64,000 nt of DNA from a virus, in the IMG/VR virus record IMGVR_UViG_3300032897_000002, positions 17,533-81,532 of that record. One strand, written 5' to 3'. This document shows positions 622-61,500 of the stretch, one piece after another (position 1 is the stretch's first letter; the number at the start of each line of letters is the position of its first letter). Made by a program: the position numbers and the translations under genes. The notes under the pieces are model-generated. The model was given only the letters and a program-made list of their open reading frames with translations, searched no databases and was not told the origin of the DNA.

Positions 622-2599
622 TCAGATAGACGGCTGCGCTGCCGAACTTACATACACGCCAGCGCGAACATTTGAGTTGGCCGTATTGAGACTCGCAACG
701 TACGCAAACATCGAACTGGTGAGGTAGGAACCTCCCGCGCTGATGTCAGGTACCGGCGCGACCGTCATGCCCCCGCCGAAGTCGTACAGTTCGAGCGGCA
801 GCATCTCACCGATGTACCAGGTACTCGGCGCAAACAGGTCCAGCCGTCCCGGCAGTGCGTTCATGCCCACCATCAGGTCGAATCCGCCCCAAGTGGCAGG
901 CCAGTGGCGCTGGGTCATGTCGGGAGTCGTATCGCCCTTGGTATCCTCGCGGCGTGCCGACAGCACGTTGAGGTAGAGCGAAGCGATCTGCATGGCCTGG
1001 TCAGGCCCGCAGTACCACATCGCACTTTGCAGTGCGGCGTTGTCCTTGCCCAATGCACGCAAGAGCAACGTCTGGGCGCGGAAGGGGGTCAATGTGCTGA
1101 TGGAGGCGCCGTTGAGATTGATGGTGGGCGTGCTGAGACGGCCCGGATAGCTGGCGCGGCTGAGCCCGCCGATGCTGCCGGCGTTTGAGTTGAGTTGCCA
1201 AGCCCGGAGTCCTAGGATGGAACTGCCCGCTGCACCGCTGGTACCGGCCACCATGAGGTAGTCGCCGGTGGTTGTGCCGCTTGGCAATGCGCCAGCGCTG
1301 TAGATGGTTTGGGCAACAGGGTCCACGTAGGAGATCGTGAAGCTGCCCCGGCTGGAGCCGCCGACGCTCGGGAACACCTGAATGACTTGCTGGTCGGCAA
1401 ACTGGAAGGCGTTGTTGAGGCCCACAATGGAGCTTGTTGACTGCCCCGACCCCGTGTTGTTGTTGATGGTGGCGGTGGTGGGGATAGTGTCGAGAGTTCC
1501 CGACCCATCGCCCTGCAACAGCGATTCGAGGCCCTGCGTGGCCTGCTGGAAAGTGTTCTTCAGTTCCTGCGCCTGCACGTTGAAGAGTCCGCGTTTGCGG
1601 CCCTCCGTCGCAATGCGGGCCAGGAAGGTGATTTCACAGACCGAGAAGTAAAACACCGGAGCCAGCGCGAAACCGGCCCACTGGCTGCCCGTCCCACGGC
1701 CCAGAGAATCGGCGTTGCCGGTCCCCTGCGCGATGGCGGCCCCTGCCTGAATCCTCAAGGGAACGCGGAAAGACGGACGGGTTACGCCACCCGCTGCGGT
1801 CGTGAAGGAGACCGGGATGGTTGTTGCCTTAGTCTTAAATACCGTGTAGAGTGTCTTGTCAAATTGGATAAGATCAGGAATATCCTTAGCAAAGGCATCA
1901 AGTTCAATCAGTGTTGTTACTCAGTTGATTACTATATCATCTTTCTTCAACTGAGGTGCGGTCATTTCTGCCGCACTCTGTTCGTCACCGAACAGCTCAG
2001 ACTGGATCTTCTGTGTTTCCACAGGCTCACGCACAGTCGTTACGGAACCCAAGCCACGCGAGTTAAGTTCCTTGACTCGCGCCATCAGAAGTTCGTCCTC
2101 GGCACGGTTCGGCCTCATATGCCGACCCCTCTGGGTATGTACCCGACCCTTCAAAAACATGCCGGCCAGACGTAGATGTTCTGCTTTGGCGACGGCCACG
2201 GGCTCGATCAATTGGATATATTTTTTCTGTGCAGCGATAACTCGAATCTGCACAGCCCATGAACCCCGAAATCCCTTTTCGATATTCGGCTTCGTATGAA
2301 CCACGCCGAAATAGATGTTCGCCCTTCGCAGAATATCTTGAACCTTCTCGGAGATCAGCGCATTCGTGCTTGTGACCGGCTGGATGACGAGCCTAATCAC
2401 GCCGTCACCGCTATTGCGGTAAAGCATGACGCTGCCCTCGCCATCTAGCATCCCAGCCAAATATCCGATTTCTTTGTCGCTGATTTCCATTGGTTTCCTC
2501 GGAATTATCTCCCCCCGGAGACCTTTCCCGATACAGTGAGCTTTTAGGAGACCTGTTTTACCGAGCCTCCACTGCGGACTCGTATACGGGTGATGGCAT
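622..2599 (-). CDS. Putative major capsid protein, split by a group I intron (join of 2599-2564 and 1908-622)
   Basis: Exon 1 starts at ATG 2599 after a GAGGTGACAC ribosome site and encodes 12 residues (MPSPVYESAVEA). Without splicing it runs into TAA one codon past the proposed junction. Exon 2 is open from 1908 to a TGA at 622 (428 residues), with no suitable internal start near its true N-terminus; the first start codon is a TTG at 1758 with no ribosome site. Splicing as proposed restores a 440-residue protein rich in small residues, with FVFYFSVCEITFLARI-like hydrophobic and beta-rich stretches. Its place after portal and scaffold, size and composition fit a major capsid protein; no HK97 motif was matched by eye. 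An alternative junction (CGGT joined to TAACAAC) also keeps frame, so the boundary is uncertain by a few codons. Confidence 0.7.
1909..2563 (-). ncRNA. Group I self-splicing intron in the capsid gene
   Basis: The helices appear in the order expected for a group I core. P1 pairs exon GGAGGCU (2570-2564) with the guide GGUCUCC (2553-2547), leaving a U.G pair at the splice site. P3 is GCUCAC (2541-2536) with GUGAGC (2030-2025). P4 is CGGGAA (2530-2525) with UUCCG (2504-2500). P5 is a perfect GUCUCC/GGAGAU hairpin (2522-2507). P7 is ACUGU (2037-2033) with AUAGU (1935-1931), inside an R-like ACGACUG and an S-like GAUAUAGU. The endonuclease gene fills the P6-P7 interval. The 3' end is placed after the G at 1909, which keeps exon 2 in frame; it is less certain than the 5' site. 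Confidence 0.85.
1921..2490 (-). CDS. Intron-encoded LAGLIDADG homing endonuclease
   Basis: The 189-residue protein has the LAGLIDADG signature as YLAGMLDGEG at residues 9-18, a single-motif enzyme that would act as a homodimer. ATG 2490 follows CGAGGAAACC, which also serves as the start of P6. The last 40 codons overlap the 3' half of the intron core (P7, P3, P8), and the stop TGA lies just before the 3' splice site in the same frame as exon 2. Such enzymes cut intronless copies of the host gene and spread the intron by recombination. The target here would be an uninterrupted capsid gene near its 5' end. Confidence 0.9.
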   Translation of the reverse strand: MEISDKEIGYLAGMLDGEGSVMLYRNSGDGVIRLVIQPVTSTNALISEKVQDILRRANIYFGVVHTKPNIEKGFRGSWAVQIRVIAAQKKYIQLIEPVAVAKAEHLRLAGMFLKGRVHTQRGRHMRPNRAEDELLMARVKELNSRGLGSVTTVREPVETQKIQSELFGDEQSAAEMTAPQLKKDDIVIN

Positions 2600-2942: not shown

Positions 2943-3248
2943 TTATGCGACTCCCTTGAGCTTGTCTTCGATCTCCGCCTTCTGCTTGCGCAGAGCTTCG
3001 CGCCGCTCTTCAGGAGTGGCAAGCTGCGTCAACCGGGCGTTGATCTTCCGCAGTTCGGCTTCGAGCGCGTCGGCGTTGCGGACCGTGATCTCCCGGCGCA
3101 GGGCCTTCAACTGAATGTCAACAAATTCGGGCTCGGGGATGTTCAGCGCTTCGTATTCGGAACGAATCGAGCGTCCGAAGGCCGACAACTCCACAAGCTC
3201 GTCCAGCGTCAGCCGGTCTTTGTCAAACGACTGATATCTCTCCAGCAT
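2943..3248 (-). CDS. Coiled-coil protein of the Ro60 operon
   Basis: 101 residues from ATG 3248, after a strong AGGAGG ribosome site that sits inside the 3' end of the Ro60 gene; the two genes overlap by 26 bp, so translation is likely coupled. Residues 50-98 are charged and heptad-like, suggesting a coiled coil. No enzymatic motif is visible. Its tight coupling suggests a partner or accessory of Ro60; this is inference. Confidence 0.75.
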   Translation of the reverse strand: MLERYQSFDKDRLTLDELVELSAFGRSIRSEYEALNIPEPEFVDIQLKALRREITVRNADALEAELRKINARLTQLATPEERREALRKQKAEIEDKLKGVA

Positions 3249-4821
3249 AGACTGCCTCCTTTCTCTCAGATTTGAAAACTTCTTTCAGTGTCACAAGCGG
3301 CACCGCCATGATCTCGTCCAGAATTGAATAGCGATTAACCCGCATGGTCTGGACCAGATTCGGCAGTGCATAGTGGTCGATGCTGTCCCCCAGCACGAAT
3401 TCCTGCAAGTCCAGTTCCGCCAGCTTCATGCTGTCCTGCAAGTCCATGTCGCCCGAGAACCGGAACGACGTGGCATTGAGCATCCGAAGTCGCGGAATGA
3501 GATGGCTTCGATATTCCGGCCCGCAGCGGTAGAGGTACACCGGAGGCTGCTTCCCGACAAACTCCGCATAGCGTGCATAGACCGCCGTAAATGCCGGGTT
3601 CTGGTTCTCCTTCGCATCCGATACTACCGCGATGCCATCCACCTCCAGCTTCGCATCAAGCAGATATTGCAGTGCCACCCCAATTGAGGTGCCCCCATCA
3701 GCGCGAACCTTGCTGGTTTCCTTGAGCAGTTCATCGTAGGTCTTTCCGGTTGCGTTGATGAAGCGCGGAGAGGTGTCGAAGAACACCAAATAGACGTTCC
3801 CCTTCACCATTCTGGCCAACGTCGCCGCAACTTGGCGGGAGGCTTCGATGGTGCTGCTCATGCTCCCGCTTTTGTCGCCCAACACGGCCCAGTTGCCTTC
3901 GACCCCTCCGAGCGTCTTGATCTGCTTCTCCTGAAGGGCTTGCAACTTCGCCTTGAGGCCCTCATCCTCGACCGCATCGGCCGCCACGGTGGTTTTGAAG
4001 GTGGCCTTCTTGCTGGTTCCCGCCTTCGCGATTGCGGCTTCGTAGGCGCCACGCAACGCCGGATTCGTCTTGATGCCGAGTTTTTCCAGCATCTTCGTAT
4101 TCGTGACCAACTCAGTCGGTGTCATGCCGTTGATGAGCGCCAAAACAAGGTCCGTTTCCTTGGCCATCTTCCCGAGCGCTCCGACGGCCACCAGAAAAGG
4201 AATTTTGCGGCCGATGATCTCCCCGGCTGCCTCTATCGGGGTCATGTCCTTCAAGTGCGTGATGATGTCGAAGATACTGCCCTTCGGGACCGGCATCTTG
4301 TCGGGGTGCTTCTTCGACGTTCCGAACAAGATCGCATCTGCCAGCGGGCACGGCTTTACATGCGCGAGAGCGTAGAGTGCCTTGAGGGTCTGCCGGTGCT
4401 GAACCGCAGCCCGCTCCCAGCGGTGCCAGTTGGCTTCCCGGTTGTGCAGGTAATCACCGATGAGCCCTTGCAGACTGCGAATCGTCTTGCTGCGCCCCGG
4501 CCACGGATGAGTTTTGCGAAGCTCCAGGGCAAACCGGAAAGCCCGCTCCAGTTCACGCGGTCCTTGTAGCGCCACATGCGCGAGCGAGTTCTCGATGAAA
4601 TCGCTGTCGGTAAATTCGGGCGAGCAGAGCGAGATGACCGGCAGCGCCACCTTGGAGTCACGGATTTGGCCTTTCAGTTGATTCCACGCAATGAGGTGGC
4701 TCAAAAATTCAGGCTCCCGCCGGGCGGCCTCCTGGGTCACCGGAATGTACTCTTCCAACTTGCCGTGAGGAGACTTGCTCAGGTCACTCAAAATTTGATT
4801 CTTGGTGATGCCGGTTTCCAT
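3223..4821 (-). CDS. rsr: Ro60/Rsr-like TROVE-domain RNA-binding protein
   Basis: 532 residues, the usual size of Ro60 orthologs. Residues 1-310 are the helical TROVE repeat ring (for example HLIAWNQLKGQIRDSKVALP near residues 42-61). Residues 311-485 form a von Willebrand A domain with a complete metal site: D316, S318 and S320 in DKSGSMS, T378 in GGTSIG and D402 in VSDAKE. Ro60 proteins bind misfolded RNA in the central hole and Y RNAs on the outside; in bacteria a Y RNA can tether Ro to a nuclease such as PNPase. Four Y-RNA-like elements lie directly upstream, the last ending 17 nt before the ATG (ribosome site AGAGGTAATCC). The gene lies between scaffold and capsid genes, a moron-like position. 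Confidence 0.93.
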   Translation of the reverse strand: METGITKNQILSDLSKSPHGKLEEYIPVTQEAARREPEFLSHLIAWNQLKGQIRDSKVALPVISLCSPEFTDSDFIENSLAHVALQGPRELERAFRFALELRKTHPWPGRSKTIRSLQGLIGDYLHNREANWHRWERAAVQHRQTLKALYALAHVKPCPLADAILFGTSKKHPDKMPVPKGSIFDIITHLKDMTPIEAAGEIIGRKIPFLVAVGALGKMAKETDLVLALINGMTPTELVTNTKMLEKLGIKTNPALRGAYEAAIAKAGTSKKATFKTTVAADAVEDEGLKAKLQALQEKQIKTLGGVEGNWAVLGDKSGSMSSTIEASRQVAATLARMVKGNVYLVFFDTSPRFINATGKTYDELLKETSKVRADGGTSIGVALQYLLDAKLEVDGIAVVSDAKENQNPAFTAVYARYAEFVGKQPPVYLYRCGPEYRSHLIPRLRMLNATSFRFSGDMDLQDSMKLAELDLQEFVLGDSIDHYALPNLVQTMRVNRYSILDEIMAVPLVTLKEVFKSERKEAVYAGEISVV

Positions 4822-6132: not shown

Positions 6133-6666
6133 ATGCCCGAAGAAAATCTTACCACAACTCCAGAGATTTGGAAGCCCGTTGTTGGCTATGAGGGATATTA
6201 CGAAGTTTCAAACAAGGGAAGGGTGAAGCGCGTTGGGCACCGAAAACATACGCGAATAGGTAGAATTATAAAACCGTGGTTAAGCCGTGGATACTGCCAA
6301 GTACGATTATCAAGGGACGGAAATTTAATTGCGCGTCTTGCCCATCAACTTGTCATGGAGGCTTTTGTTGGCCCCCGCCCAGAGAAACATGAAGTAAATC
6401 ATATCAATGGCATTAAGACAGATAATATATGGCCTGAGAATCTTGAATATGTTACAAAAAGTCAAAATCAATTACACGCCTCAGACCTCGGTTTGATGCA
6501 CCGGGGAGAAGATCACCACAAGGCAAAACTTACAGAGGAGCAGGTTAAAGAAATTATTGTCGCCGAAGGATCGCATTCGCAAATCGCGATAAAGTATGGC
6601 ATCAGCCGAGCCATGATTTCATACATTAAACGAGGCAAATCATGGCGTCATATTCCGCGTCCATAG
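6133..6666 (+). CDS. NUMOD4-HNH homing endonuclease
   Basis: 177 residues on the strand opposite to the head genes; ATG 6133 follows GGAAGGAGGCCGTC. Residues 10-50 match the NUMOD4 start pattern (EIWKPVVGYEGYYEVSNKGR). Residues 70-115 hold the HNH nuclease (LAHQLVMEAFVGP, EVNHINGIKTDN, NLEYVT), and residues 130-170 a helix-turn-helix (SQIAIKYGISRAMISYIKRG) likely used for site recognition. The layout is that of freestanding HNH homing nucleases common in phages. The AT-richer coding sequence suggests a recent arrival. Confidence 0.93.
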   Translation: MPEENLTTTPEIWKPVVGYEGYYEVSNKGRVKRVGHRKHTRIGRIIKPWLSRGYCQVRLSRDGNLIARLAHQLVMEAFVGPRPEKHEVNHINGIKTDNIWPENLEYVTKSQNQLHASDLGLMHRGEDHHKAKLTEEQVKEIIVAEGSHSQIAIKYGISRAMISYIKRGKSWRHIPRP

Positions 6667-6731: not shown

Positions 6732-8132
6732 TTAGGCCCTCGGTGCTCCTGGTCCGATGCGGCCTGGACGCCACGAGACGAGCTTCCCGTTAGCTTTGAG
6801 ATATCCCCTTCCAGTTATGTACATTAATTGATTGGGATCTTTACTCATATCTAACTCTTCGATTCTGGGCTTCACCGCAATCGGAATGGGTTTGTTGGGA
6901 TTCAACCCCCCCCCAACTCGCGGAGCCTGCTGTTGAGGCTGTTGCGGCTGATAGATGGGCTCCTGCGGGGCCACACGGCGTACCGGAGGCTTCTCTGGGC
7001 CGTAGCGAAGCTCAACCACAGCTTTGATGGCGTCTTTCCGCACCTTGTCGATCTGCGGCTTGGCAAACCGCGTGATGGTGTCGATGGTGGCCTGACCGCT
7101 GTTGGTCTGGCGAAGAAGGTTTTTCAGGCTCGTATCGAAGAATGTCCCCGGCCCCAACCGGCGGGCGATCTCAACAATGCTGGCGTTTTCGAGGTCCTCG
7201 ATGGCCTTGGCCGTGAGGTTGCGCCCCTTCGACCATGTTTGCAGCACCGGCCGCACGGTACTGCGCATGTAGCTGTCCAGGTCGCGGCCAACGTGTTGTT
7301 CGAGCATCTGGCGCTTCTCGGTGCGGACCTGTTCCTGCTGCTTCTGGAGTTCATTCACGCGGGGGTCTTTGTAGCGGTTCTTGATCTCGTCATCCATGCC
7401 GCGAAGTTTCTTGATCCACTCCTCGACGGCCTGAATCTTCGCGCCCGCCCGCGCTACTCCATCTGCGGTGCCGGTCTTGAGTTCCTGAAGGGCTTCCGAC
7501 AACGCTCCCGTAGCGCCCTGGCCGTCCAGCGTGTCCAAGATCGGCCGCATGACGGCGAGGAAGTAGGCTTGCTGGTCCATTTTCTGGAGGATGCTGAGGG
7601 CTTCCGGTACGAGCTTCTTGAACCCCTCGGGGCTGGCTTGGCTCATCTCCTCGATCAGCCGCCCGTCGCCGTGGTCGAGCATGTCGTCAATGTCGGCCAC
7701 CCGGTCGCCCAACTTCTGCATCTCCATAAGGCCGTCAAAGCCTCCGAAGGCGTCGATGGTGGCCTGCGCCCCCCGCGCTTCTTCGACGGTCGGATAGACT
7801 TCCGTGAAGCCCTTCCAACGCCCGTAGGCGGCCTGGAGTTCGCGGAGGGCCGATGCGTGCTGAGGCGCCGTCGTGCGCAGTTCCCTGATGGCCTTATACA
7901 CATTCGCCGGTAACGGAGGCGTCTCCTCCTGCAAGGGCGATGGCGCTGGCTCGGCCGGTTGCGCACCCTCCCCTTCTACGGGGGGCATTTCCCCGCCTTC
8001 TCCCGGCTGTGGTTCCAGCGGGGCTTCCGTCCCCAGTCCCGTTTCGACCGGAAGTTGCTCTGTGCCGCCCTCCGGCGCTGCGCCCGTTCCTGAATCTACC
8101 AAGCCTTGCAAAGTGTCGATATCGGCTCCCAT
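6732..8132 (-). CDS. Putative head scaffolding protein
   Basis: 466 residues, starting 26 bp downstream of the portal stop. The N-terminal 70 residues are acidic and rich in Pro, Gly and Glu; residues 75-370 are mostly charged helix (for example a QKQQEQVRTEKRQMLEQH stretch); then comes a Gln/Pro-rich linker (YQPQQPQQQAP) and a basic, ordered C-terminus. A long acidic helical protein between portal and capsid genes is the usual place and shape of a scaffold, with a C-terminal capsid-binding tail. No protease motif is visible. Assignment rests on context. Confidence 0.65.
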   Translation of the reverse strand: MGADIDTLQGLVDSGTGAAPEGGTEQLPVETGLGTEAPLEPQPGEGGEMPPVEGEGAQPAEPAPSPLQEETPPLPANVYKAIRELRTTAPQHASALRELQAAYGRWKGFTEVYPTVEEARGAQATIDAFGGFDGLMEMQKLGDRVADIDDMLDHGDGRLIEEMSQASPEGFKKLVPEALSILQKMDQQAYFLAVMRPILDTLDGQGATGALSEALQELKTGTADGVARAGAKIQAVEEWIKKLRGMDDEIKNRYKDPRVNELQKQQEQVRTEKRQMLEQHVGRDLDSYMRSTVRPVLQTWSKGRNLTAKAIEDLENASIVEIARRLGPGTFFDTSLKNLLRQTNSGQATIDTITRFAKPQIDKVRKDAIKAVVELRYGPEKPPVRRVAPQEPIYQPQQPQQQAPRVGGGLNPNKPIPIAVKPRIEELDMSKDPNQLMYITGRGYLKANGKLVSWRPGRIGPGAPRA

Positions 8133-8158: not shown

Positions 8159-11100
8159 TCAAACTTGTGGTCCTGGTGCAACAATCGGCATCGGAACGGC
8201 GGGTCCGGTCGGATGCTTCGATTTCTCAAGCTCGGCCTGAAATTCGCGGGTCGTTGAAACGTCCGAACCCGTCACCGTGGTATCTCCCCGGCGCTGCAAC
8301 TCCTTCGCCACCGATTCGGCCGGCAGGTCGCTCAGCTTGCCACTGATGTTCATGGGCTTTACAACGGGCTCGGGCGGAGGCACCTTTGCTTTATGCTCAG
8401 AAAAGTGCAGATTAAGGTTGAGGAAAGCTGCCTGTTCCTCGGGACTCCCGTTGGCGAGTTTGCGTCCACGCGGGTCGTTGATCACATCGAGACACGCTTC
8501 CGCCTCCGACGCATGATCGTCTGTGTCGCGCACTGGGACCGTGGAAACAAGGTCTGGCAGCGCGTTGATGGCCGCTTCCATCTGCATAAGGGCCTGTGTC
8601 TCCTCGGGGGTTATCACGACGCCCTGCAACATCTTCGCGGCTGCCTGCGCCTTGGCCTGCTCGAAGGCCATCTGGGCCTGCTGCTTGGCGGGATTGGGAA
8701 CGGGGCCGCTGGCTAGCAGTACATCCAACTCGCCCATTTGTTTGTCGTAGGCGTCGGCCTCGGAGCACTTGAAGTGTCCGATGCGGAACGACTCCATCGC
8801 GGCCCGGATATTGGCGACCTTGCTGAGCAGTTTCATGACGAGCGGGTTGGTGACCTGCATCAGCACGCGGTTCCATGCGGCCTGACGCTGCGCGGGACTC
8901 TCGGAGTACCCGGCATCATCCTGCGGGAAGCACAGCACATTACCCTTGAGGTCGTCAATTTCGATATCGACCGCCTCGCCATTCTTGTCGGTTTGGTGGA
9001 TGGAGGCATTCCGGCAGCGGGCCGCGAGTTGCACGGCCTGGCGATGGTAATTGCAGGTGGCCATCTTCATGGCGTGCCACGGCGTTCCCTGGGTCGCGAG
9101 GGCCTGATCGCGCTGGATTTCGAGAGCGACACCGGATGGATTCGCAACGTCTGTATTGGCCGTGGACCCGAAGAGAGTCGGTAAGGCGTGCACAATCAAC
9201 TGCGGCAACTGCTCGATGAAGTACATGATTAACTGGATCATGAACGGCTGGCCGGTGGGGGTCGGAAACACAAACATGGAGTCGGCTATGGGCTTTCCCG
9301 CCGCTGCGCCTTGAAGCTGCCGCGAGTCCACTGGGATGAACGCCCCCGGATTCGAGCCGGTCTTGTTGAGCGCGTCCACGTCGAACAGCACCGTGTCCAC
9401 TGCGGTGTGCGGGACGCACTTGGTCATGTAGGCATCGGCCAAATCGAGCCAGTTGTTGAGGCGCCGCTGGATGGACGTGAGGCTGGACATGAGGGACTTG
9501 CGGTTCTGGCCTGTACCCGGAAGGGCCTGGATGAGCGTGAGGTGATCATCCATGCACTCATTGCGGGCCTCGATGAACGTGTCCCCGGCCATATAGCACT
9601 TCACGCCGTCGGGGAACGCATCGAACAGTTCACGCCGCACATCGAGGTCTTCCACTTCCATAAACATCGCGGGCCGCATCCAGATGCGATGCAGCGTGAC
9701 ATCCTTTACGAGCGAGTCCCCGGTGACGTAGCTCGCTTCGAGCGACAACGACACGTTGATGCGGGCAATGCGGTCCAGTTCGATTTCGGCCACGCCGGAA
9801 CCACCCGGCTTGATCTTGTCGGCTTTCTTGGGGAACATGGCCTTCAGCCGCGCCACATCGAACTCGCGGGAGACCTTCACGAAATCCATTTCGTCAAGCG
9901 ATTGCGCGACGATGGGGACCTTCGCCTCTAACTTGCCGCAGACCTCCACGACTTCCTGCCCACGCGGGATGCCACGCTTGATGCCGGCCGGTTGAGTGCC
10001 GGTGGATTTGGGGAAGATGGGCCGCATGTCGTAGTTGGCGTCCTCTTTCTGCTCCACCACCGCTACGCCACCCGGAGGCACGTTGGTAATGCCGTAGGGA
10101 ATCTCAGGGTTCAGAAATTGGCCCACAGAACTAATAACCGAATCATGACAGACGATGGCAAACGGTAGCCCCGGAGTTCGCAGCAGGTCCAGAATTGCAG
10201 AAGCAACGCGCTGATTGAACTCCTCGACATTCTCTCCGCCGGGAGCTTCCTCTTCGCCGGTAAAGATTTCGCGTATTTCCTCGGCATTTTTTTGCGCATC
10301 CTCTCCCGTAAGCGTTCCCAGGTCGAAGGCGGCTAGACGGTCATCAACATCGTAAGGCACCCCAAGGGCCTGCGAAACGTATTCGGCCGTCTCCACGCTC
10401 CGCTGTACGGGGCTGCACACAATGCGGCTGATGTTCTTGCCCTTCAGGAATGCCGCTACCTTCTCGGCCTCGCGCCGTCCGAGCTTGTTGAGCGGGTCCT
10501 GCGACTCGCCGCGCAGCTTGCCCTCAGCGTTCTTTTCGGTCTCGCCGTGGCGCACGATGTAGAGCAGGGGATTGTTGACGTGCTCTTCGGTTTCGGGCAC
10601 AACGGGCTCGGCAGGCTCGTTGAGGGGCTCCCGCCCAAAGCGCTGCGCGTCGATAACGTGGTCTGTTATCAACACGACCCGGCCATCGGTACAGAGGTAG
10701 TTGGCGATCTGCATGTGGGTGCCCAGCAGGTCGTTCTGGCTCTCGAACACGCGGGCATAATTGGACGCGGCTTCCTTCGCGGTGATGTCGGCATCGTCCT
10801 CGGGGTCACGCGCCTGGAACTGCACGCCGGGAATGTCACGCGATAGCGCTGCCGTGATGATCTGCTCGTAGCAGCCGTAGATGTTGGTCTCGTTGCCCCA
10901 GAACTTCTTGTTGCGGGTTGTGCCGCCGATGGTGCCGCTGAAACCGAGGGCTACCCAGCCGCCACCACGTCTCGGTAAAAGATATTGATAACCACGGGAA
11001 TAGAGTCTTTGGGACCAAGCGTCTTCAAACTTCCCATCTGCGCGCGGCCAAGTCGCGCCTTGCGGTTGCACCGCACAGGTCTACTAACGTGTTTTCTGCC

Positions 11101-11240
11101 TTCTCGCTGAGCTTACTTGGCTGATATGGTGACGACCAAGCAGGACTAATTTCGCCCGGTTCAAATTCTAGGCTAGGATCGCCTTGCGGCCTTTTCTTGG
11201 TTTCTTCATCAGTCGAATTGAAGGTAGGGTATGTTGCCAT
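8159..11240 (-). CDS. Portal protein with embedded histidine-phosphatase domain; N-terminus in another frame (frame break near 11027)
   Basis: The main frame (8159-11071, GTG start, 970 residues) has portal features: FWGNETNIYGCYEQIITAAL, GQEVVEVCGKLEAKVPI and a long helical C-terminus. Residues 168-350 are an inserted phosphoglycerate-mutase-like domain: RHGE (H175), CSPVQRSVETAE, DLGTLTGE, APGGEN and IVCHD (H309). The GTG has no ribosome site and an in-frame TAG lies four codons upstream. A second frame from ATG 11240, behind GGAGGGATACCATCTG, encodes a fitting N-terminus and ends ...AARRWEV at GTT-TGA (11030-11025). Skipping one T continues as EDAWSQRLYSRG. This is either a programmed +1 shift or an assembly error or mutation in a TTT run. 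Confidence 0.85.
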
Positions 11241-11273: not shown

Positions 11274-11702
11274 TCATTGGATCACTATTGAATCCCTTTG
11301 ACGCGATTCAAGCAATTTTTCGTGCAACGCTTGGCGGTATGCCAATTTCTCCTTTGGGCAACTCTCTCGCCGTTGCGTATGGACAACCAAGGTTTCTATG
11401 AAATCCAACGCTAGGCCGATCTGTTCTCGTTTTCGAATTGAATGCGGATATATGTCGGCAAGAAATCTTTTTGCCGAAGTTCCGACAGCTTTTAACTGCC
11501 AGCAAGCCGCAGATTTTCTGGGTTGGCGAAGTCTAAATTCTGGGTAGAGTAGCTGAATTGCGGAGAGAAGCCCTTTGTCGTTTTGGGCTATTTCAACATT
11601 CAGTTGGCCGAACGGGGTCGAGGGCTTGATGGTATAGATGCTTACACAGCCTTCGCCATCAAAGAAGCCTGCGAGCCATTGAGGAGTTATTCTTTCAATC
11701 AT
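11274..11702 (-). CDS. LAGLIDADG homing endonuclease (freestanding)
   Basis: 142 residues with WLAGFFDGEG at residues 9-18, the single LAGLIDADG motif of homodimeric homing nucleases. It sits between the YodC-like small gene and the portal gene, whose ribosome site begins directly after it, so no intron is needed to explain its place. The upstream 110 bp (11703-11816) contain two perfect hairpins. About the same length class as the intron enzyme at 1921-2490 but with clearly different sequence. Confidence 0.88.
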   Translation of the reverse strand: MIERITPQWLAGFFDGEGCVSIYTIKPSTPFGQLNVEIAQNDKGLLSAIQLLYPEFRLRQPRKSAACWQLKAVGTSAKRFLADIYPHSIRKREQIGLALDFIETLVVHTQRRESCPKEKLAYRQALHEKLLESRQRDSIVIQ

Positions 11703-26537: not shown

Positions 26538-28136
26538 CTATCTGTTCCCCTCTCGAAACCACTCCGGGGCGTAATCGACCTCGACCACGTACTTCTTTTC
26601 CTTGGCCATGTGCTGCATCAGATACAGGTCTCGCTGGACTGGATCACCGATCAGGGCCGCGTGGGCTTGGGTCTGAATGTCCTCCGGCATCTCGGCAAAA
26701 CGCACCGGGCCGGCAAAGGTCAGCGCGAGGGCGTCTCCTTCGTCGGGGGATTTCAGGCCGCGTTTCTTCATGCTCTCTTTGGACTCCAGAATCAACTTGC
26801 CGTTGGCCTTGGAAGCTCCGTAGCCAACCTGGGTCAAGTCCTGCTCCAGGTCGGGGCTGTGCGGGATAGCGCCTTGTGGCAGCCAGGCCCGCATACGCCA
26901 CCACATAGCCGCCCGCATGTTCTCGCAGTGTGCCTCTGCGGATGAGCCGCTGAACTGCACTCCCACAATCCGCACGCCATGGCCTTTATCGGGCCAACTC
27001 TCCACCACCGCCCGCAGGCGGTCCCCGATAGGTCCGCCGATGGAGCCGCCCGTTTCATCAATAAAAACCATGTCTGGCCAGCGCTCGCGGATCACGTCAG
27101 CTAGGAGCGACACCATAATGCCGGTGTCCCGCGTCTTCTCGCCCGGTACCATCAGCCAGGGAATCGACCGCGCATCCTGCCCGCGCCGGAAGGCAATCAC
27201 GTTGCGGTCGTCGCCGCCCCGCGCCAGGTCCACGCCCATCAACAGCGGGTCAAGGGATTCATCAACGTGCCGCGTCATGGCGCCATAAACCCGGTCTGAG
27301 TCGATAAAGGACGCATCGCCGGCCCGTGGGAACTCACCGCGCACCCGGACGCGCACAAAGTCGCTATCCTCGCCCCAGTCCTCAACCCATTGTTGGAATT
27401 GCTCTTTATTGGTACCGTCAACTGTACGGCTGTCAATCTGATAGGTCTTCCAGCGGTGCGAATGGCGGCCGAAACACTCACGGAAGCGGCCGGTTGATCT
27501 TGAAGGGTTCCCGAAGGCCAGCCAGATTATCTCTGTGCCGGTGTCGGTCTGCGCACCTTCGGCAGCAGCCCAGATACTATCCGCTATCGCGCTTGCCTCA
27601 TCGAATACTAGCACGATCCGGCTGCCCTGGTTGTGCATTCCCTGAAAGGCTTCTGAATTGTGCTCCGTCCACGGCACCAAGTCTGCCCGCCAGTCGGCCG
27701 GCGACTCTTTAACGGCTAAAGTGGTGCCGGTCAACGCCATCCAGTGGCTATTGATGGCGCGATTGAGCCAGATGTTAAGCTCTGGCCGGGTCTTTGTGCG
27801 TAGCTGTACCTCAGTGTTGGCGGTGACCGTAGCGCGGGCGCGGGGGCACGTTGACAGGCCCCACAGCAGCACCATAGAGACTAGGGCAGACTTCCCGATG
27901 CCATGACCAGAGCTTACGGCAATGCGGCAGGGCTCGCCGCGCCGGTTCTGGAGATGCCAGGCGATATACTGGAGGATTTCACGCTGCCAAGGGCGTGGAC
28001 CGGGAGCACTTAGCAATTCACCTTGACCCCAGCCAAACGCTAGATGGACATATCGAAGCGGGTCGTAAGTGCAATAGCCGACTGCCTTTATAAGCTCAAG
28101 ATCGGCTTCAGTTGCCTGCGGTGAGGGCGCGGACAT
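26538..28136 (-). CDS. terL: Terminase large subunit
   Basis: 532 residues. ATPase half: Walker A SGHGIGKS (76-83), Walker B VLVFDEAS (175-182). Nuclease half: GVDLARGGDDRN with the first catalytic Asp, VFIDETGG, and the DEGDALALTF acidic motif near residue 480. This is the packaging motor that pumps DNA through the portal and cuts concatemers. It overlaps the small subunit by 29 bp. Both catalytic sites look complete. Confidence 0.95.
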   Translation of the reverse strand: MSAPSPQATEADLELIKAVGYCTYDPLRYVHLAFGWGQGELLSAPGPRPWQREILQYIAWHLQNRRGEPCRIAVSSGHGIGKSALVSMVLLWGLSTCPRARATVTANTEVQLRTKTRPELNIWLNRAINSHWMALTGTTLAVKESPADWRADLVPWTEHNSEAFQGMHNQGSRIVLVFDEASAIADSIWAAAEGAQTDTGTEIIWLAFGNPSRSTGRFRECFGRHSHRWKTYQIDSRTVDGTNKEQFQQWVEDWGEDSDFVRVRVRGEFPRAGDASFIDSDRVYGAMTRHVDESLDPLLMGVDLARGGDDRNVIAFRRGQDARSIPWLMVPGEKTRDTGIMVSLLADVIRERWPDMVFIDETGGSIGGPIGDRLRAVVESWPDKGHGVRIVGVQFSGSSAEAHCENMRAAMWWRMRAWLPQGAIPHSPDLEQDLTQVGYGASKANGKLILESKESMKKRGLKSPDEGDALALTFAGPVRFAEMPEDIQTQAHAALIGDPVQRDLYLMQHMAKEKKYVVEVDYAPEWFREGNR

Positions 28137-28815
28137 TGTTCTCTTCGGGGGTTTCCTGCTTAGGCATGGTTGATAATCGCTGCCGAATGACCGCTAATTG
28201 CTCAGCGATAAGAATAGGCCCACCATTAGGCCCGGAGACCTCAACCTTGGTCGGGAACAGCGCCAAATGCTTCCCGAGCATCTCAAGCGCTCGCAACCTG
28301 TCTGTCAGCTTGAACTTGCGCAACTGACCGAAGCAATGCTTACCGCTGCCGTCCGCCGCGTCTTCGTACAGGTTCACAAACTCAAAACCGGCCACTGCAT
28401 GGGCGCTCAGGTCATCCAGGTCTTTAATGTCCTTCGCGGTGCCTTTTTCGTCAAAGAAATCTCGAACGTCGTAAGTCGCTGATTTGGCAAGAGCTTGCAG
28501 AACGTCGTCGGCCTTCATTTCGATCTTCTTAGCCTGAATCGCCAAAAGTTCATCAATTCTTGCCCGTATTTTAGGGGTTTTTAGCAGTTTGGCAGCCGAT
28601 ACCGCCGCAGACCTTGGACTGTACCCGGCCCGAACCGCTGCGAGCATCTTCTTGCGGTCAACGATGTACTCACGGCAGAAGCGCTCTTGATTATCAGGGA
28701 GTTTCCCGCCCTTCGTCTGGGATGGCCTGCCCTTGGGTACAGTGGCCCCAGGCTGCACTTTCTCGGGTTGGTGCCCCGCTAATTGTGCGTTGCTGCTTTT
28801 CTGATCTTCGAGCAT
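28108..28815 (-). CDS. terS: Terminase small subunit
   Basis: 235 residues. A basic N-terminus (QTKGGKLPDNQERFCREYI) followed by the small-terminase helix-turn-helix block (AAVRAGYSPRSAAVSAAKLLKTPKIRARIDELL) and a helical oligomerisation region ending in RLRALEMLGKHLALF. Matches the Terminase_2/Nu1-type pattern. It recognises the packaging site and regulates TerL. Confidence 0.9.
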   Translation of the reverse strand: MLEDQKSSNAQLAGHQPEKVQPGATVPKGRPSQTKGGKLPDNQERFCREYIVDRKKMLAAVRAGYSPRSAAVSAAKLLKTPKIRARIDELLAIQAKKIEMKADDVLQALAKSATYDVRDFFDEKGTAKDIKDLDDLSAHAVAGFEFVNLYEDAADGSGKHCFGQLRKFKLTDRLRALEMLGKHLALFPTKVEVSGPNGGPILIAEQLAVIRQRLSTMPKQETPEENNVRALTAGN

Positions 28816-43320: not shown

Positions 43321-43674
43321 TCACCTCGCCCTGAATTTGAACTCGACTTCGAGATAGCGCAGGATAGCCATGAACCGCGCCTTGCCGTCCCGCAGGTCTG
43401 CGCCCCGCACTTCCCCAACCTTCAGAAATCCGTTTGGCCCGTCGCCATCTCGGGAGAGCAGCGCCCGCGATAACGCAATGCCGCGCCCTACTTGGCGGCT
43501 GAAGTGGTCCAGCGGCGAGCACCGCCCAATGCCGATGCGGAGATGCAGCTTGACAATCTCGACGCCCTGGTAGCACGCATGAGTCACCACCACCGCGAAA
43601 GTCCGGCGGTCGCGTATCGGCTGATTCAGCAGGTCTTTGTGGGCTTCGTGAAAGATGTAGACTTGGGGGGTCAT
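43321..43674 (-). CDS. Hypothetical phage protein
   Basis: 117 residues from ATG 43674, coupled to the upstream Gp37/Gp68 gene by ATGA. Begins TPQVYIFHEAHKDLLNQPIRDR and is beta-rich. Not recognised; conserved-looking in its linkage. Confidence 0.65.
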   Translation of the reverse strand: MTPQVYIFHEAHKDLLNQPIRDRRTFAVVVTHACYQGVEIVKLHLRIGIGRCSPLDHFSRQVGRGIALSRALLSRDGDGPNGFLKVGEVRGADLRDGKARFMAILRYLEVEFKFRAR

Positions 43675-44945
43675 CGGTTCACCTCGGGGAATTCTCGAAT
43701 TCTTAAATCCTCTGGCCATTCTTCGGGGTTCCCACCCTTATGGTCCTTGATGCGGAGAGGTATCTGCCCGCCGTTAATGTGCGTCCATGGGTGCGCCCCG
43801 AGTTGCTTCATAAAATATTTCACGCCAGCCGCCTTACACTGATCTCGCAGGCTTCGATACCACGCGAGATTCGAGGGCCGCGCATTCGGACCACTCTCGC
43901 CACCGGCGATAACCAAATTTAGATGAGGAACTTTTAGTTCGCCGCTGCCATCGCTAAAATCGTACCGGGAAAGTGCCGACCAAGTATGCTCGTTCTCAGG
44001 ATATGGCACATCGAAACTGATCGGGCCAATGAGCGGTTCCAAGCTGGCGAAGAGCACATTGTAAGGCCCCACAATCCAGCGCATGGATTCAAATCGCGTC
44101 ATCCGTTCATTGAAAGTCTTTTGATTTTCCGCGCTGAATCCGAACTGCACATTGGGAGGCAAGGCGTGCTTCGGGCGGCCACAAAGCCGCATCCAATCGG
44201 TGCTCTCTTCCGTCAGTCCCTTTTCGTCAAATTCATACTCTCTCTCGACACCTATTGCCTTCAGGCTCTCCCAGTCGTCAATGCTCTCAGCAATGGGGCA
44301 GCAGTAGTTGTGGCATTCGCCTTCCTCGTTATTTTTGGGATGAGAACATCGCCAATCGCCATGAGCGTAGCCGCATTGGTTGCGATAGAAAATATCATCC
44401 AAGTGAGCCTCGTAGCCCGGTCCCATCGGCACCCGCTCTTTTTCCGTCCATCCGAATGAACGTCTGGAAGCCCGTTTCTCGACGTATTTGCACATGCGCT
44501 CAACGCGCTTCGTGAGAATCTGAAAGGTGTGCTGGCAGCATTCCCACATGATGTCGAAAACTTTGTCGATCATCTCATCCGGCACAAACTCCCCGAACAG
44601 GTCCGTCTGTGAGCACACAAACACTTTGCGCGGCTTCTTCCAATGGCGGGGCTGAAGGAGAATCTTTTCGTCAAGGAAGATTTCAACGAGGTCGCGGGCT
44701 TGGCGATTGAACGGGAGGCCGGTTCCGTTGAAGGGAAGGCACCGACCGTTATTGGTTTCACTGTAGCAGTGTACGCATCCCGGCGAGACACGCTCGCAAT
44801 GCGGCCCCACTCTTCCGGGTTGGATGATGGGCAGGAGAGAGGTGTACCCTTTTTGCTTTGCGATCTCCCGCGCATCCTTGCGGACCTTGGCACGGAGGGG
44901 TGTCCATGAGGCATCCGTCCATTGGATTGAACTTTTTGCGCCCAT
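43671..44945 (-). CDS. Gp37/Gp68 (DUF5131)-family protein
   Basis: 424 residues. N-terminal SSIQWTDASWTP and CERVSPGCVHCYSE, then FVCSQTDLFGEFVPDEMIDKVFDIM, WLLTKRVER-like LTKRVERM, ...GGESGPNARP and QCKAAGVKYFMKQLG are the family hallmarks. The Cys cluster and barrel pattern resemble radical-SAM-type enzymes, but the activity is not known. Transcribed from the 44964-44992 promoter; ribosome site GGAGGTCTTA. Confidence 0.9.
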   Translation of the reverse strand: MGAKSSIQWTDASWTPLRAKVRKDAREIAKQKGYTSLLPIIQPGRVGPHCERVSPGCVHCYSETNNGRCLPFNGTGLPFNRQARDLVEIFLDEKILLQPRHWKKPRKVFVCSQTDLFGEFVPDEMIDKVFDIMWECCQHTFQILTKRVERMCKYVEKRASRRSFGWTEKERVPMGPGYEAHLDDIFYRNQCGYAHGDWRCSHPKNNEEGECHNYCCPIAESIDDWESLKAIGVEREYEFDEKGLTEESTDWMRLCGRPKHALPPNVQFGFSAENQKTFNERMTRFESMRWIVGPYNVLFASLEPLIGPISFDVPYPENEHTWSALSRYDFSDGSGELKVPHLNLVIAGGESGPNARPSNLAWYRSLRDQCKAAGVKYFMKQLGAHPWTHINGGQIPLRIKDHKGGNPEEWPEDLRIREFPEVNR

Positions 44946-58564: not shown

Positions 58565-61500
58565 TCACTTCCGATTTTCCGCTGTGGTCATCGTCGGCGC
58601 ACCCGGCCCGCCGATTTGGTAAATGTGAACTTCTTGGTCCTGCCAATTCGAGGACGTGTCCGTGAACGTGTGGCCCGACATGGTGATGGTCCGGCTTTCC
58701 CCGACCACGTTGACCGTGCTCCCTGACGGAATCACGTTCGTCAGCGTGAACGTGGGAGCGTAGGCCGTCCCTCCCGTGCCGTTGGAGTTTATCGACCCGC
58801 ATAGATTCGTCGCGAAGATGTAATACGAACCTCCGATGGCTTTCGTCACGAATCGCACCGGCCCGAACGGGAACAAGGTCGAGTCGGTATAGTTGCCAGC
58901 ACGGGCGGTAATCCCGCACGCGGCTGCGGGGGTCTGGCTGGTGGTGACGTTCGAGACTATCGTGCCCACCCCTGGCGGGTAGTAGCCTGCCATGCCGGTA
59001 GGCGCGGAGCTATCGAGAGTGGGGCTTTCGAGCACGTACTGCCACGAATTGATTTCCTGGCCCAACTGCACGGCGTCGAGATAGGCTTGGGTGTTGGCGT
59101 ACTGGTAATAGAAAATATCCATCGCGTCGCCATTGCCCCAATTCCACATCATGCTCCCGCACCCCAAATTGCCTGTCTCCTCGCAGCCGATGAGTTGCTT
59201 CCAAGCCGCCCGTCGCAATTCGGCATACGGGAAGCCGCGCTCCAGCGAGACCTTCTGGAATTGTTGGATGACACCGAGGTAGCTCTTGGCCCCGTAAGTG
59301 TCCCGGCCCAACACCCACGCCCCCACGTCGCTATTCTGCGGCGCCATCACACCGCCCGAAGTCCCGCTGGTCAAGCCCGTGGAATTGTTGGTGCCGTTGT
59401 AGATGGTCGCATTGCGGCTCTGGTCGCCCGCCCATACCAAGTCTGCTAACGAAGCCGACCCGCAGCAGTAGGGGTCATTACCGACGAGATCAAGCACGTT
59501 CCTCCAGATTCGGTAGGCGGTGTTGTCCACCAACACTCCCCACGAGAACATATCGTAGGAGCCGTTTTGCTGCATACCCGCTGGGCTCATCATCTGCCGC
59601 CAGACGTTTGCGGTGGACTGGGGGTGAGGCTCATCGGCGACGTAGTAGCCCTGTGCACCGGCTTTCTGGCTGCCGTCCATGACGGCCGTGTAGAGTTGCC
59701 AGAAGGAAGGGTCGGTTACCGTAGGCGAGCCGCTCTCCCAACTCGGCCGGCTGAGCAGCGTGGTATCGATGGGAGCAATCTGCTGCACCGACATCGCGGC
59801 CCCAGTCGGCACCACGTAAGTCGAGCCACCCAGCACTGGCGAGCCCACGGGAGTCTGAAGGAAGTAATTCCACGGGTTATTGGGACTGGCCGACGATGCC
59901 TGCGAGATGTAGAAGCCTGTCTGTCCAGTTCCGAGTGCGGGAAGCGTAAGCGTGGAGCCCGCCACCGCCGCGAAGCCCGGTGACGGCAGGCTCACGAGCC
60001 CTGGCGACACCGCTTGGATGATGACGTTCACCGTGGCCGTTCCGGTGCAACTTGAGGTGCAAGTGACAGCGGCAGGGGTGTTTGCGACGGTGTTCGAGGT
60101 GGGCAGAATCGGGCCATAGGCGAAGTTGAGTGACCCCTGGTTGCCGCCGCTGGTGCCGTCGCCAATCAACGTAACGCTCGTCTGGCCGCATGAGACAAAC
60201 GGAGTATTCTCGGCCCCAGAGTAGCTGTAGAAGGCATCGCCGGAAGGTGCCGTGGAATTGCTGGTGCTTGCAGCGACGTGAATTCCCCAGCCGATTTGCC
60301 GACCCTGGCAACTTGGCAAGGCCACTGTCACGTAGTTATTCGTCGCATTCGCAAACGCGCTTGACGACACCACCGCCGCGCTCGTCATGCCGCGCTGGAG
60401 CGTGTTTCCGGCCTGCCCGAGAGACGACCAGTATTTAGGTACGATTTCGACCCACGCATAATGGGTGCCGTCGTCCTTGATGTCGCCCGATCCACCTTGA
60501 CCTATCGTGACGGAGCTTGGTGAGGTCGGAATCGTGTTGGCCGAATCCTGGCCCGCTTCGTCCCACCCTGTACCGTACAGGGTGTTGGAGATTTGGAAGT
60601 GGCTGAAGCCATAGACCTGCGCGACGGTGAGCCACGGGCTTAGCTGATCGCTTCCCGGCGTCACGTTGACGGCGGGGAATAGGTTGAATGGCGACATGAG
60701 CGAATTGAAGTTGTTGATCTGGTAGTCGAGGACCGCTTGGCTTCCATTCGTCGTAATCAACATGCCGCTGTGCGTGGCGTTGCTGGTACTGAGGGGCGGT
60801 GTCGAGCCCATGCCTGCAATCAGATTTTCGTAACTCGTTGTCGCACCGAATCCCGAGTAGAGCCCCGGACTTGTTCCGGTCCTATTTTTCGCGGTCCAAC
60901 TGTCGTAGGCCCCCCAGTCGATTTGGCGCTGGGATCGGTGGACAATGGCTCCATCCGAATCAGAGTAGTTGGTGAGCGTGGCCCGAAACGCAGGAGACAC
61001 ATAGTAGAACCGGTAGTCCGGTATCGTGTACGTCACTGAGTTCACAGTTGCAGCCGTGCAGACGTAATAGGCCGTGGCAGGGGGATTCTCTGCGGCGTTC
61101 CCCAGGCCCGCAATCCATGTGGCCGCATCGAAGTTCCAATGCACCACTCCCAGGTTCCATGCCCCAAAGGTTTGAGGCAGCGTGACCGTCTGGGTGGGTG
61201 GCGTAATCGAGATCGTCTGGCGATGCCCCGTGGCGTTGGCGCAACCCGCCGCTGTATCGACGTAGAGTGCTACCGAGTAGGTACTGAAGTTGGTATCGCC
61301 CGCATTGAAAGCGGAGTAGGGCATGGCCAATTCAATGTTCCCTGCGATTTTTCCAGCAGCCGGTGAAGGACCGTAATAGGTCTGTGAGGGAACCTTGTCG
61401 CTCCACAAGTAGCCGTGGAAATTGGGATAGGTAATGTCATTTTGAAGCGGGAAATCTGCCTCGACCACAGAGGGCTCTGCAATCCAAATCGTTCCCGCTG

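What the first reader, a model, noticed from the sequence alone, without database searches (positions are those of the whole stretch)
8159..11240. Portal protein with an inserted histidine-phosphatase domain
Residues 168-350 of the main frame carry RHGE and the second catalytic His (IVCHD) of the phosphoglycerate-mutase-like superfamily, and portal-like sequence resumes after it. An enzymatic domain inside the DNA-translocating ring is striking and would be present in about twelve copies per virion. In the usual catalytic Glu region the sequence is LAAFDLG, so the acid residue is altered.
Basis: partly seen in the sequence, partly recalled or inferred. Interest (0 to 1): 0.82.

Follow-up and report, generated by a model that had tools for sequence, protein, structure and literature searches.

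The report
Phage portal with inserted histidine-phosphatase domain
In one small clade of uncultivated phages, the ring protein through which DNA enters the virus head carries a whole enzyme-like phosphatase domain in one of its outer loops, a real and inherited architecture whose function is still unknown.

Summary
ORF 8162-11071 (-) is a portal protein interrupted at residues ~166-357 by a branch-1 histidine-phosphatase domain (Pfam His_Phos_1, E=1.4e-32). AlphaFold (mean pLDDT 82) shows both folds in one chain: flanks match podovirus-type portals (Pan3 Z 24.5), the insert matches histidine phosphatases (Z 24.2). It is not a chimera: nine other viral contigs (five further lineages) carry the domain at the same site, whereas about 60 homologues have a 30-80 aa acidic loop there. 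One acquisition explains the portal tree (SH-aLRT 100). Pocket residues R174, H175, N181, R224, H309 are invariant; the usual Glu is Ala or Ser in all six lineages, and Asp follows the second His in all. The nearest cellular relatives found also lack the Glu, so its loss alone does not show inactivity. Placement on the wing, inside the shell, in twelve copies is inferred. Most likely a tethered phosphatase acting during assembly; activity and substrate are untested. Enzyme domains fused to portals are known, so this is a new variant. In this contig the portal's first ~70 residues lie in another frame.

The parts
8162..11071 (-). portal protein main frame, 970 aa (stop 8159-8161), with the inserted domain
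   Evidence: the ORF listing; portal fold; homologues
11028..11240 (-). portal N-terminal ~71 residues (ATG 11240) in a different frame, ended by TGA 11027-11025; homologues read through in one frame here
   Evidence: (41% identity over 68 aa to L010 residues 14-81, E 1.6e-14)
10634..11026 (-). portal part before the insert: helices and strand 131-140 (wing, inferred)
   Evidence: model; alignments
10577..10633 (-). linker before the insert (pLDDT below 50 at residues 156-165)
10001..10576 (-). inserted histidine-phosphatase (branch 1) domain, residues ~166-357
   Evidence: Pfam; NCBIfam; fold
10544..10552 (-). R174-H175-G176, nucleophile motif
   Evidence: invariant in the 7 insert rows (six lineages)
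10400..10402 (-). R224, second pocket arginine (SPVQR)
10328..10330 (-). A248, position of the usual proton-donor Glu (A or S in all six lineages)
10142..10147 (-). H309-D310, second pocket His followed by invariant Asp (HDSVI)
9968..10000 (-). linker after the insert (pLDDT below 50 at 357-363)
8162..9967 (-). portal part after the insert (strand 371-378 onwards, stem, clip and crown regions by fold order, helical C-terminus)
6735..8132 (-). next gene, scaffold-like protein conserved downstream of the portal in relatives
   Evidence: 34.5% to L001 ORF 8255-9592, E 2e-68
625..1908 (-). probable major capsid protein (69-75% identical to the conserved ORF two genes downstream of the portal in relatives)
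26541..28136 (-). terminase large subunit (phrog_2, E 6e-39); small subunit at 28111-28815 (PF03592)

Best explanation
The gene encodes a genuine podovirus-type portal protein in which an ancestral phage gained, once, a complete branch-1 histidine-phosphatase domain in a pre-existing length-variable loop between two beta-strands, most likely of the wing domain. Shown by sequence and predicted fold: the insert's site, its inheritance pattern, its fold, and the invariant phosphate pocket. Inferred: the portal assembles as a twelve-subunit ring, so twelve flexibly tethered domains sit around the outside of the ring on the inner side of the capsid shell. Also inferred: the domain binds a phosphorylated ligand and probably transfers the phosphoryl group to H175, with the acid role of the missing Glu taken by D310 (as in the HD motif of branch 2) or dispensed with. 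Because the portal starts procapsid assembly in the host cytoplasm and stays with the empty head after ejection (established portal biology, not tested here), the most likely time of action is late infection and assembly, on a host or phage phospho-compound or phosphoprotein, not delivery into the next cell.
For: Pfam 1.4e-32. One model shows both folds: portal Z 24.5 over residues 10-719 and histidine phosphatase Z 24.2, rmsd 2.5 A, over 167-355. The uninserted homologue is a portal. Same insertion site in ten contigs including the window, six lineages; ~60 homologues have a 30-80 aa loop there instead. Portal tree needs one change for the insert, SH-aLRT 100. R, H, N, R, H and the Asp after the second His are invariant although the domains are only 32-45% identical to the window's. 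The four R/H pocket residues are the conserved set of the superfamily, while the Asn and Glu vary, per PMC12051542. Asp of the HD motif is the proton donor in AppA, and MINPP has Ala there, per PMC11836120. Wing location: the order of elements and SU10's description of the wing (helix 8-44, beta-sandwich), with the stem spanning the shell. Gene order portal, scaffold-like gene, probable capsid gene agrees.
Against: No activity, substrate, oligomer or virion data exist. The Glu proton donor is absent in all six lineages, so catalysis may be weak, restricted to labile phospho-compounds, or lost. Per-residue mapping onto a solved portal was not available, so the wing placement rests on element order and on alignment end points. 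In this contig the gene as assembled is frame-shifted.
Confidence: 0.6

Rival explanations
1. The insert is a pseudoenzyme: it has lost catalysis with the Glu and keeps the pocket only to bind a phosphate group (phosphoprotein, nucleotide, DNA end, scaffold or capsid ligand), acting as an assembly or attachment module.
For: Glu replaced by Ala or Ser in all six lineages; flexible tethers on both sides; the site in other homologues holds non-enzymatic linkers or CxxC knuckles.
Against: Nucleophile H175 and the whole R-H-N-R-H set are kept at low identity; pure binding would not obviously need both histidines. The nearest cellular relatives found also lack Glu, and MINPP is reported with Ala at the donor position of branch 2 (PMC11836120).
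Confidence: 0.27
2. The domain is a virion-packaged effector that is delivered to the new host, like the Nudix, 2H, InPase and ART domains reported fused to portal or MuF proteins.
For: Such fusions are described and proposed to be injected (PMC9503650; PMC5512222).
Against: The domain is inserted within the portal fold and tethered at both ends, and the portal is part of the fixed vertex. Release would need proteolysis at both linkers, for which there is no evidence here.
Confidence: 0.1
3. The architecture is an assembly artefact or chimera, or a recent decaying insertion without function.
For: The window's copy is frame-shifted near its N-terminus.
Against: Same architecture in nine other contigs from nine metagenomes with one site and one tree change, and invariant pocket residues. 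The frameshift is about 450 bases from the insert's start and absent from relatives.
Confidence: 0.03

Closest known systems
Podovirus-type portal proteins (Pan3, P22 gp1, SU10 gp6, N4, PaP3, T7 gp8)
   Same: Fold over most of the non-inserted N-terminal ~540 residues and position in the head gene block
   Different: No detectable sequence similarity to solved portals or to PHROG portal families; has the phosphatase insert; long helical C-terminal part
Branch-1 histidine phosphatases (HFP of Aquifex 9mmh, phosphoserine phosphatase 4ij5/4ij6, PhoE 1h2e, CobC)
   Same: Fold (Z 22-24, rmsd 2.5-3 A), R-H-N-R-H pocket
   Different: Glu proton donor replaced by Ala or Ser; Asp after the second His; not a free enzyme but a loop of a portal; far below every NCBIfam equivalog cut-off
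Cellular histidine-phosphatase subfamily with FRGR, NNINLG and SHRSVLK motifs (L111-L119, L122, L127, L131 from the acidobacterial search)
   Same: The nine best-scoring cellular hits to the insert profile belong here, and they also lack the Glu (Asn instead)
   Different: Arg after the second His instead of Asp; not inserted in a portal
Portal and MuF fusions with effector enzymes (Nudix, 2H, PBECR, InPase, ART, lysozyme) in PMC9503650 and PMC5512222
   Same: An enzyme domain carried by a head or portal protein
   Different: No histidine-phosphatase example is given in the passages read; here the domain is inserted inside the portal fold

Membership tests
Caudoviricetes portal protein | portal fold (wing, stem, clip and crown order) | tested here: met
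   Z 19-26 to many solved portals for the uninserted homologue and 21-24.5 for the window protein
Caudoviricetes portal protein | place in the head and packaging gene block | tested here: met
   followed by scaffold-like and probable capsid genes; terminase genes at 26.5-28.8 kb in the window; terminase large subunit upstream in relatives L001 and L003
Caudoviricetes portal protein | dodecameric ring at one vertex | not testable with these tools
   only monomer prediction was available
Caudoviricetes portal protein | sequence match to a named portal family | tested here: inconclusive
   no PHROG or Pfam portal hit; identity rests on fold
Histidine phosphatase superfamily, branch 1 | RHG motif with nucleophile His, second Arg, second His | tested here: met
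   R174, H175, R224, H309 invariant in all inserts
Histidine phosphatase superfamily, branch 1 | fold and family score | tested here: met
   Pfam 113 bits against cut-off 21.7; Z 24
Histidine phosphatase superfamily, branch 1 | Glu proton donor (usual, but reported as variable in the superfamily, so not a strict defining feature) | tested here: not met
   Ala or Ser in all six lineages; variability stated in PMC12051542
Histidine phosphatase superfamily, branch 1 | phosphatase or mutase activity | not testable with these tools
   needs biochemistry

The most novel reading that the evidence does not exclude
The loop is a general docking site on the portal at which phages of this lineage swap whole functional modules (histidine phosphatase in one clade, double CxxC knuckle in another). 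The phosphatase module is an active enzyme that moved its acid from the branch-1 Glu to the Asp of a branch-2-like HD motif and acts from the portal on a host or virion phosphorylated target.
Probability: 0.25. Interest if true: 0.78.

Novelty: new variant of a known kind. Interest (0 to 1): 0.6.

Why it matters
Portals are usually regarded as channels and pressure sensors. A kept catalytic-type domain inside the portal fold would make the portal vertex a possible enzyme platform with about twelve copies at one point of the virion. It also marks a portal loop that tolerates a folded ~190-residue insert, which is useful for labelling portals of laboratory phages. The E-to-A/S plus HD pattern offers a natural test of how the superfamily donates its proton.

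Tried and rejected
PHROGs and Pfam for the portal part gave nothing, so portal identity was taken from structure. A sequence profile against solved structures gave no portal hit. A search for the insert elsewhere in viral contigs found only portals with it, and the phage collection gave only 24-42% identical matches, mostly in unannotated records; the one with a named domain that was opened, PseuP_222, is not in a portal. dN/dS could not be used: near-identical copies have no changes in the insert, and the lineages are too far apart. The tree of insert and cellular domains does not resolve the donor; 62% of bootstrap trees keep the inserts together. Literature search for a histidine phosphatase in a portal found no description; the library is open-access only. 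Rfam gave no intron or RNA match. Chimeric assembly was rejected because of the independent contigs.

Full report
The window is positions 17533-81532 of an 81.5-kb viral contig. The minus-strand ORF 8162-11071 (970 aa, GTG start as listed) carries a Pfam histidine-phosphatase domain at residues 170-316, E=1.4e-32. phmmer against solved structures finds 53 distinct chains, all in the histidine-phosphatase stretch, best fructose-2,6-bisphosphatase; its alignment puts Ala where the enzyme has its Glu (ALNEIDAG against RLAAFDLG).

No sequence library names the rest of the protein. Homologues were collected from IMG/VR and from acidobacterial genome bins. AlphaFold with 54 sequences gave mean pLDDT 82.4 for the window protein, and with 53 gave 80.9 for homologue L017, which has no insert. 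L017 matches portals of Pan3, P22, GP4, PaP3, SU10, N4 and T7 with Z 20-26. The window model matches the same portals over residues 10-719 (Pan3 Z 24.5) and histidine phosphatases over 167-355 (9mmh Z 24.2, 4ij6 Z 24.0, rmsd 2.5 A). Both folds are therefore present in one chain, joined by two low-confidence linkers (156-165 and 357-363).

The insert lies between the strand ending at about residue 140 (motif DAQRFG just after it) and the strand starting at 371 (motif PRGxEVxxxxGKLExK). In about 60 homologues the same interval is a 30-80 residue, mostly Glu/Asp/Ser/Pro-rich loop. In ten contigs (the window and nine others, each of the nine from a different metagenome), making six sequence lineages, it is a 223-227 residue stretch holding the phosphatase. 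In five acidobacterial genome-bin sequences it is a 95-144 residue stretch with two CxxC pairs. On a portal tree made without these columns, insert carriers form one side of a branch with SH-aLRT 100 and need one change; the CxxC carriers do likewise. A chimeric assembly cannot give this pattern.

Across the inserts (32-45% identity to the window's) R174, H175, N181, R224 and H309 are invariant, as is the Asp after H309 (HDSVI). The Glu position is Ala or Ser in all. Of 31 comparable cellular relatives from acidobacteria, 19 have Glu and 12 have Asn; the nine best matches to the insert profile are all Asn proteins, and all 12 have Arg after the second His. Asp after the second His occurs once, in a protein that keeps the Glu (L110, a partial match, is left out of this count). 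Loss of the Glu is therefore not peculiar to the portals, but Ala or Ser together with HD was seen only there. PMC12051542 states that the R-H-R-H set is conserved and that the Asn and Glu vary between families. PMC11836120 gives Asp304 as the proton donor of AppA and notes Ala at that place in MINPP. Whether D310 plays that part here is inference.

Placement on the portal is inferred. The N-terminal helices of L017 (54-89) correspond by alignment end points to the SU10 helix 8-44 that lines the inner capsid face. The insert site follows in the alpha/beta part that precedes the stem and clip elements. The SU10 and T7 papers describe the wing as holding the N-terminus and the beta-sandwich, with the stem crossing the shell and the clip outside. 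On that reading the domain is on the ring's outer side within the capsid, in twelve copies.

Neighbouring genes agree with a head block: a scaffold-like gene (6735-8132) and the probable major capsid protein (625-1908) follow as in relatives. Terminase genes lie at 26541-28815.

The portal N-terminus in this contig (ATG 11240) is in another frame and meets TGA at 11027-11025 in GAA GTT TGA A; five relatives read the same place in one frame. A one-base error in sequence or assembly, a real mutation, or a +1 shift at GTT TGA are possible; I favour the first and could not test it.

Function. The best-supported reading is a tethered phosphatase-type domain acting during assembly or in the virion (0.6), against a phosphate-binding pseudoenzyme (0.27) or an injected effector (0.1). 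Published portal fusions with Nudix, 2H, PBECR, InPase and other enzymes make the general kind known. The phosphatase and its place inside the fold make this a new variant. No description of a histidine phosphatase in a portal was found in the open-access library, which does not cover all literature.

Noticed in passing
window 1909-2599 (-): The probable major capsid gene appears split: a 12-residue start (MPSPVYESAVEA, 2599-2564) and the rest from 1908 are separated by 655 bases that hold an HNH endonuclease ORF (1924-2490), out of frame, so intron-like; no Rfam intron family matched. The 12-residue match is weak (E 5.5).
   Followed up: partly
window 11025-11030 (-): Portal reading frame is shifted by one base at GAA GTT TGA A, a sequence that resembles the +1 shift site of release factor 2 (from memory); relatives are in one frame.
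   Followed up: partly
L093-L095, L098, L099 (e.g. L095 9563-12178): In acidobacteria-associated homologues the same portal loop holds two CxxC pairs, zinc-knuckle-like, with long spacers between; no Pfam match in the two tested.
   Followed up: partly
window 11277-11702 (-), 6133-6666 (+) and 1924-2490 (-): A LAGLIDADG ORF directly upstream of the portal, an HNH ORF in the capsid gene and a further HNH-like ORF by eye near the scaffold gene: homing endonucleases crowd the head genes.
   Followed up: no
window 3226-4821 (-): A protein with a VWA-like domain (Pfam just under cut-off; phrog_850 RNA-binding protein) lies between the scaffold-like and capsid genes.
   Followed up: no
window 43674-44945 (-): DUF5131 / phrog_2045 protein with about 150 extra residues relative to the profile, and a homologue near the head genes of L010 and L018.
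   Followed up: no
window 58568-63739 (-): 1724-aa ORF without any Pfam match at E 0.01.
   Followed up: no
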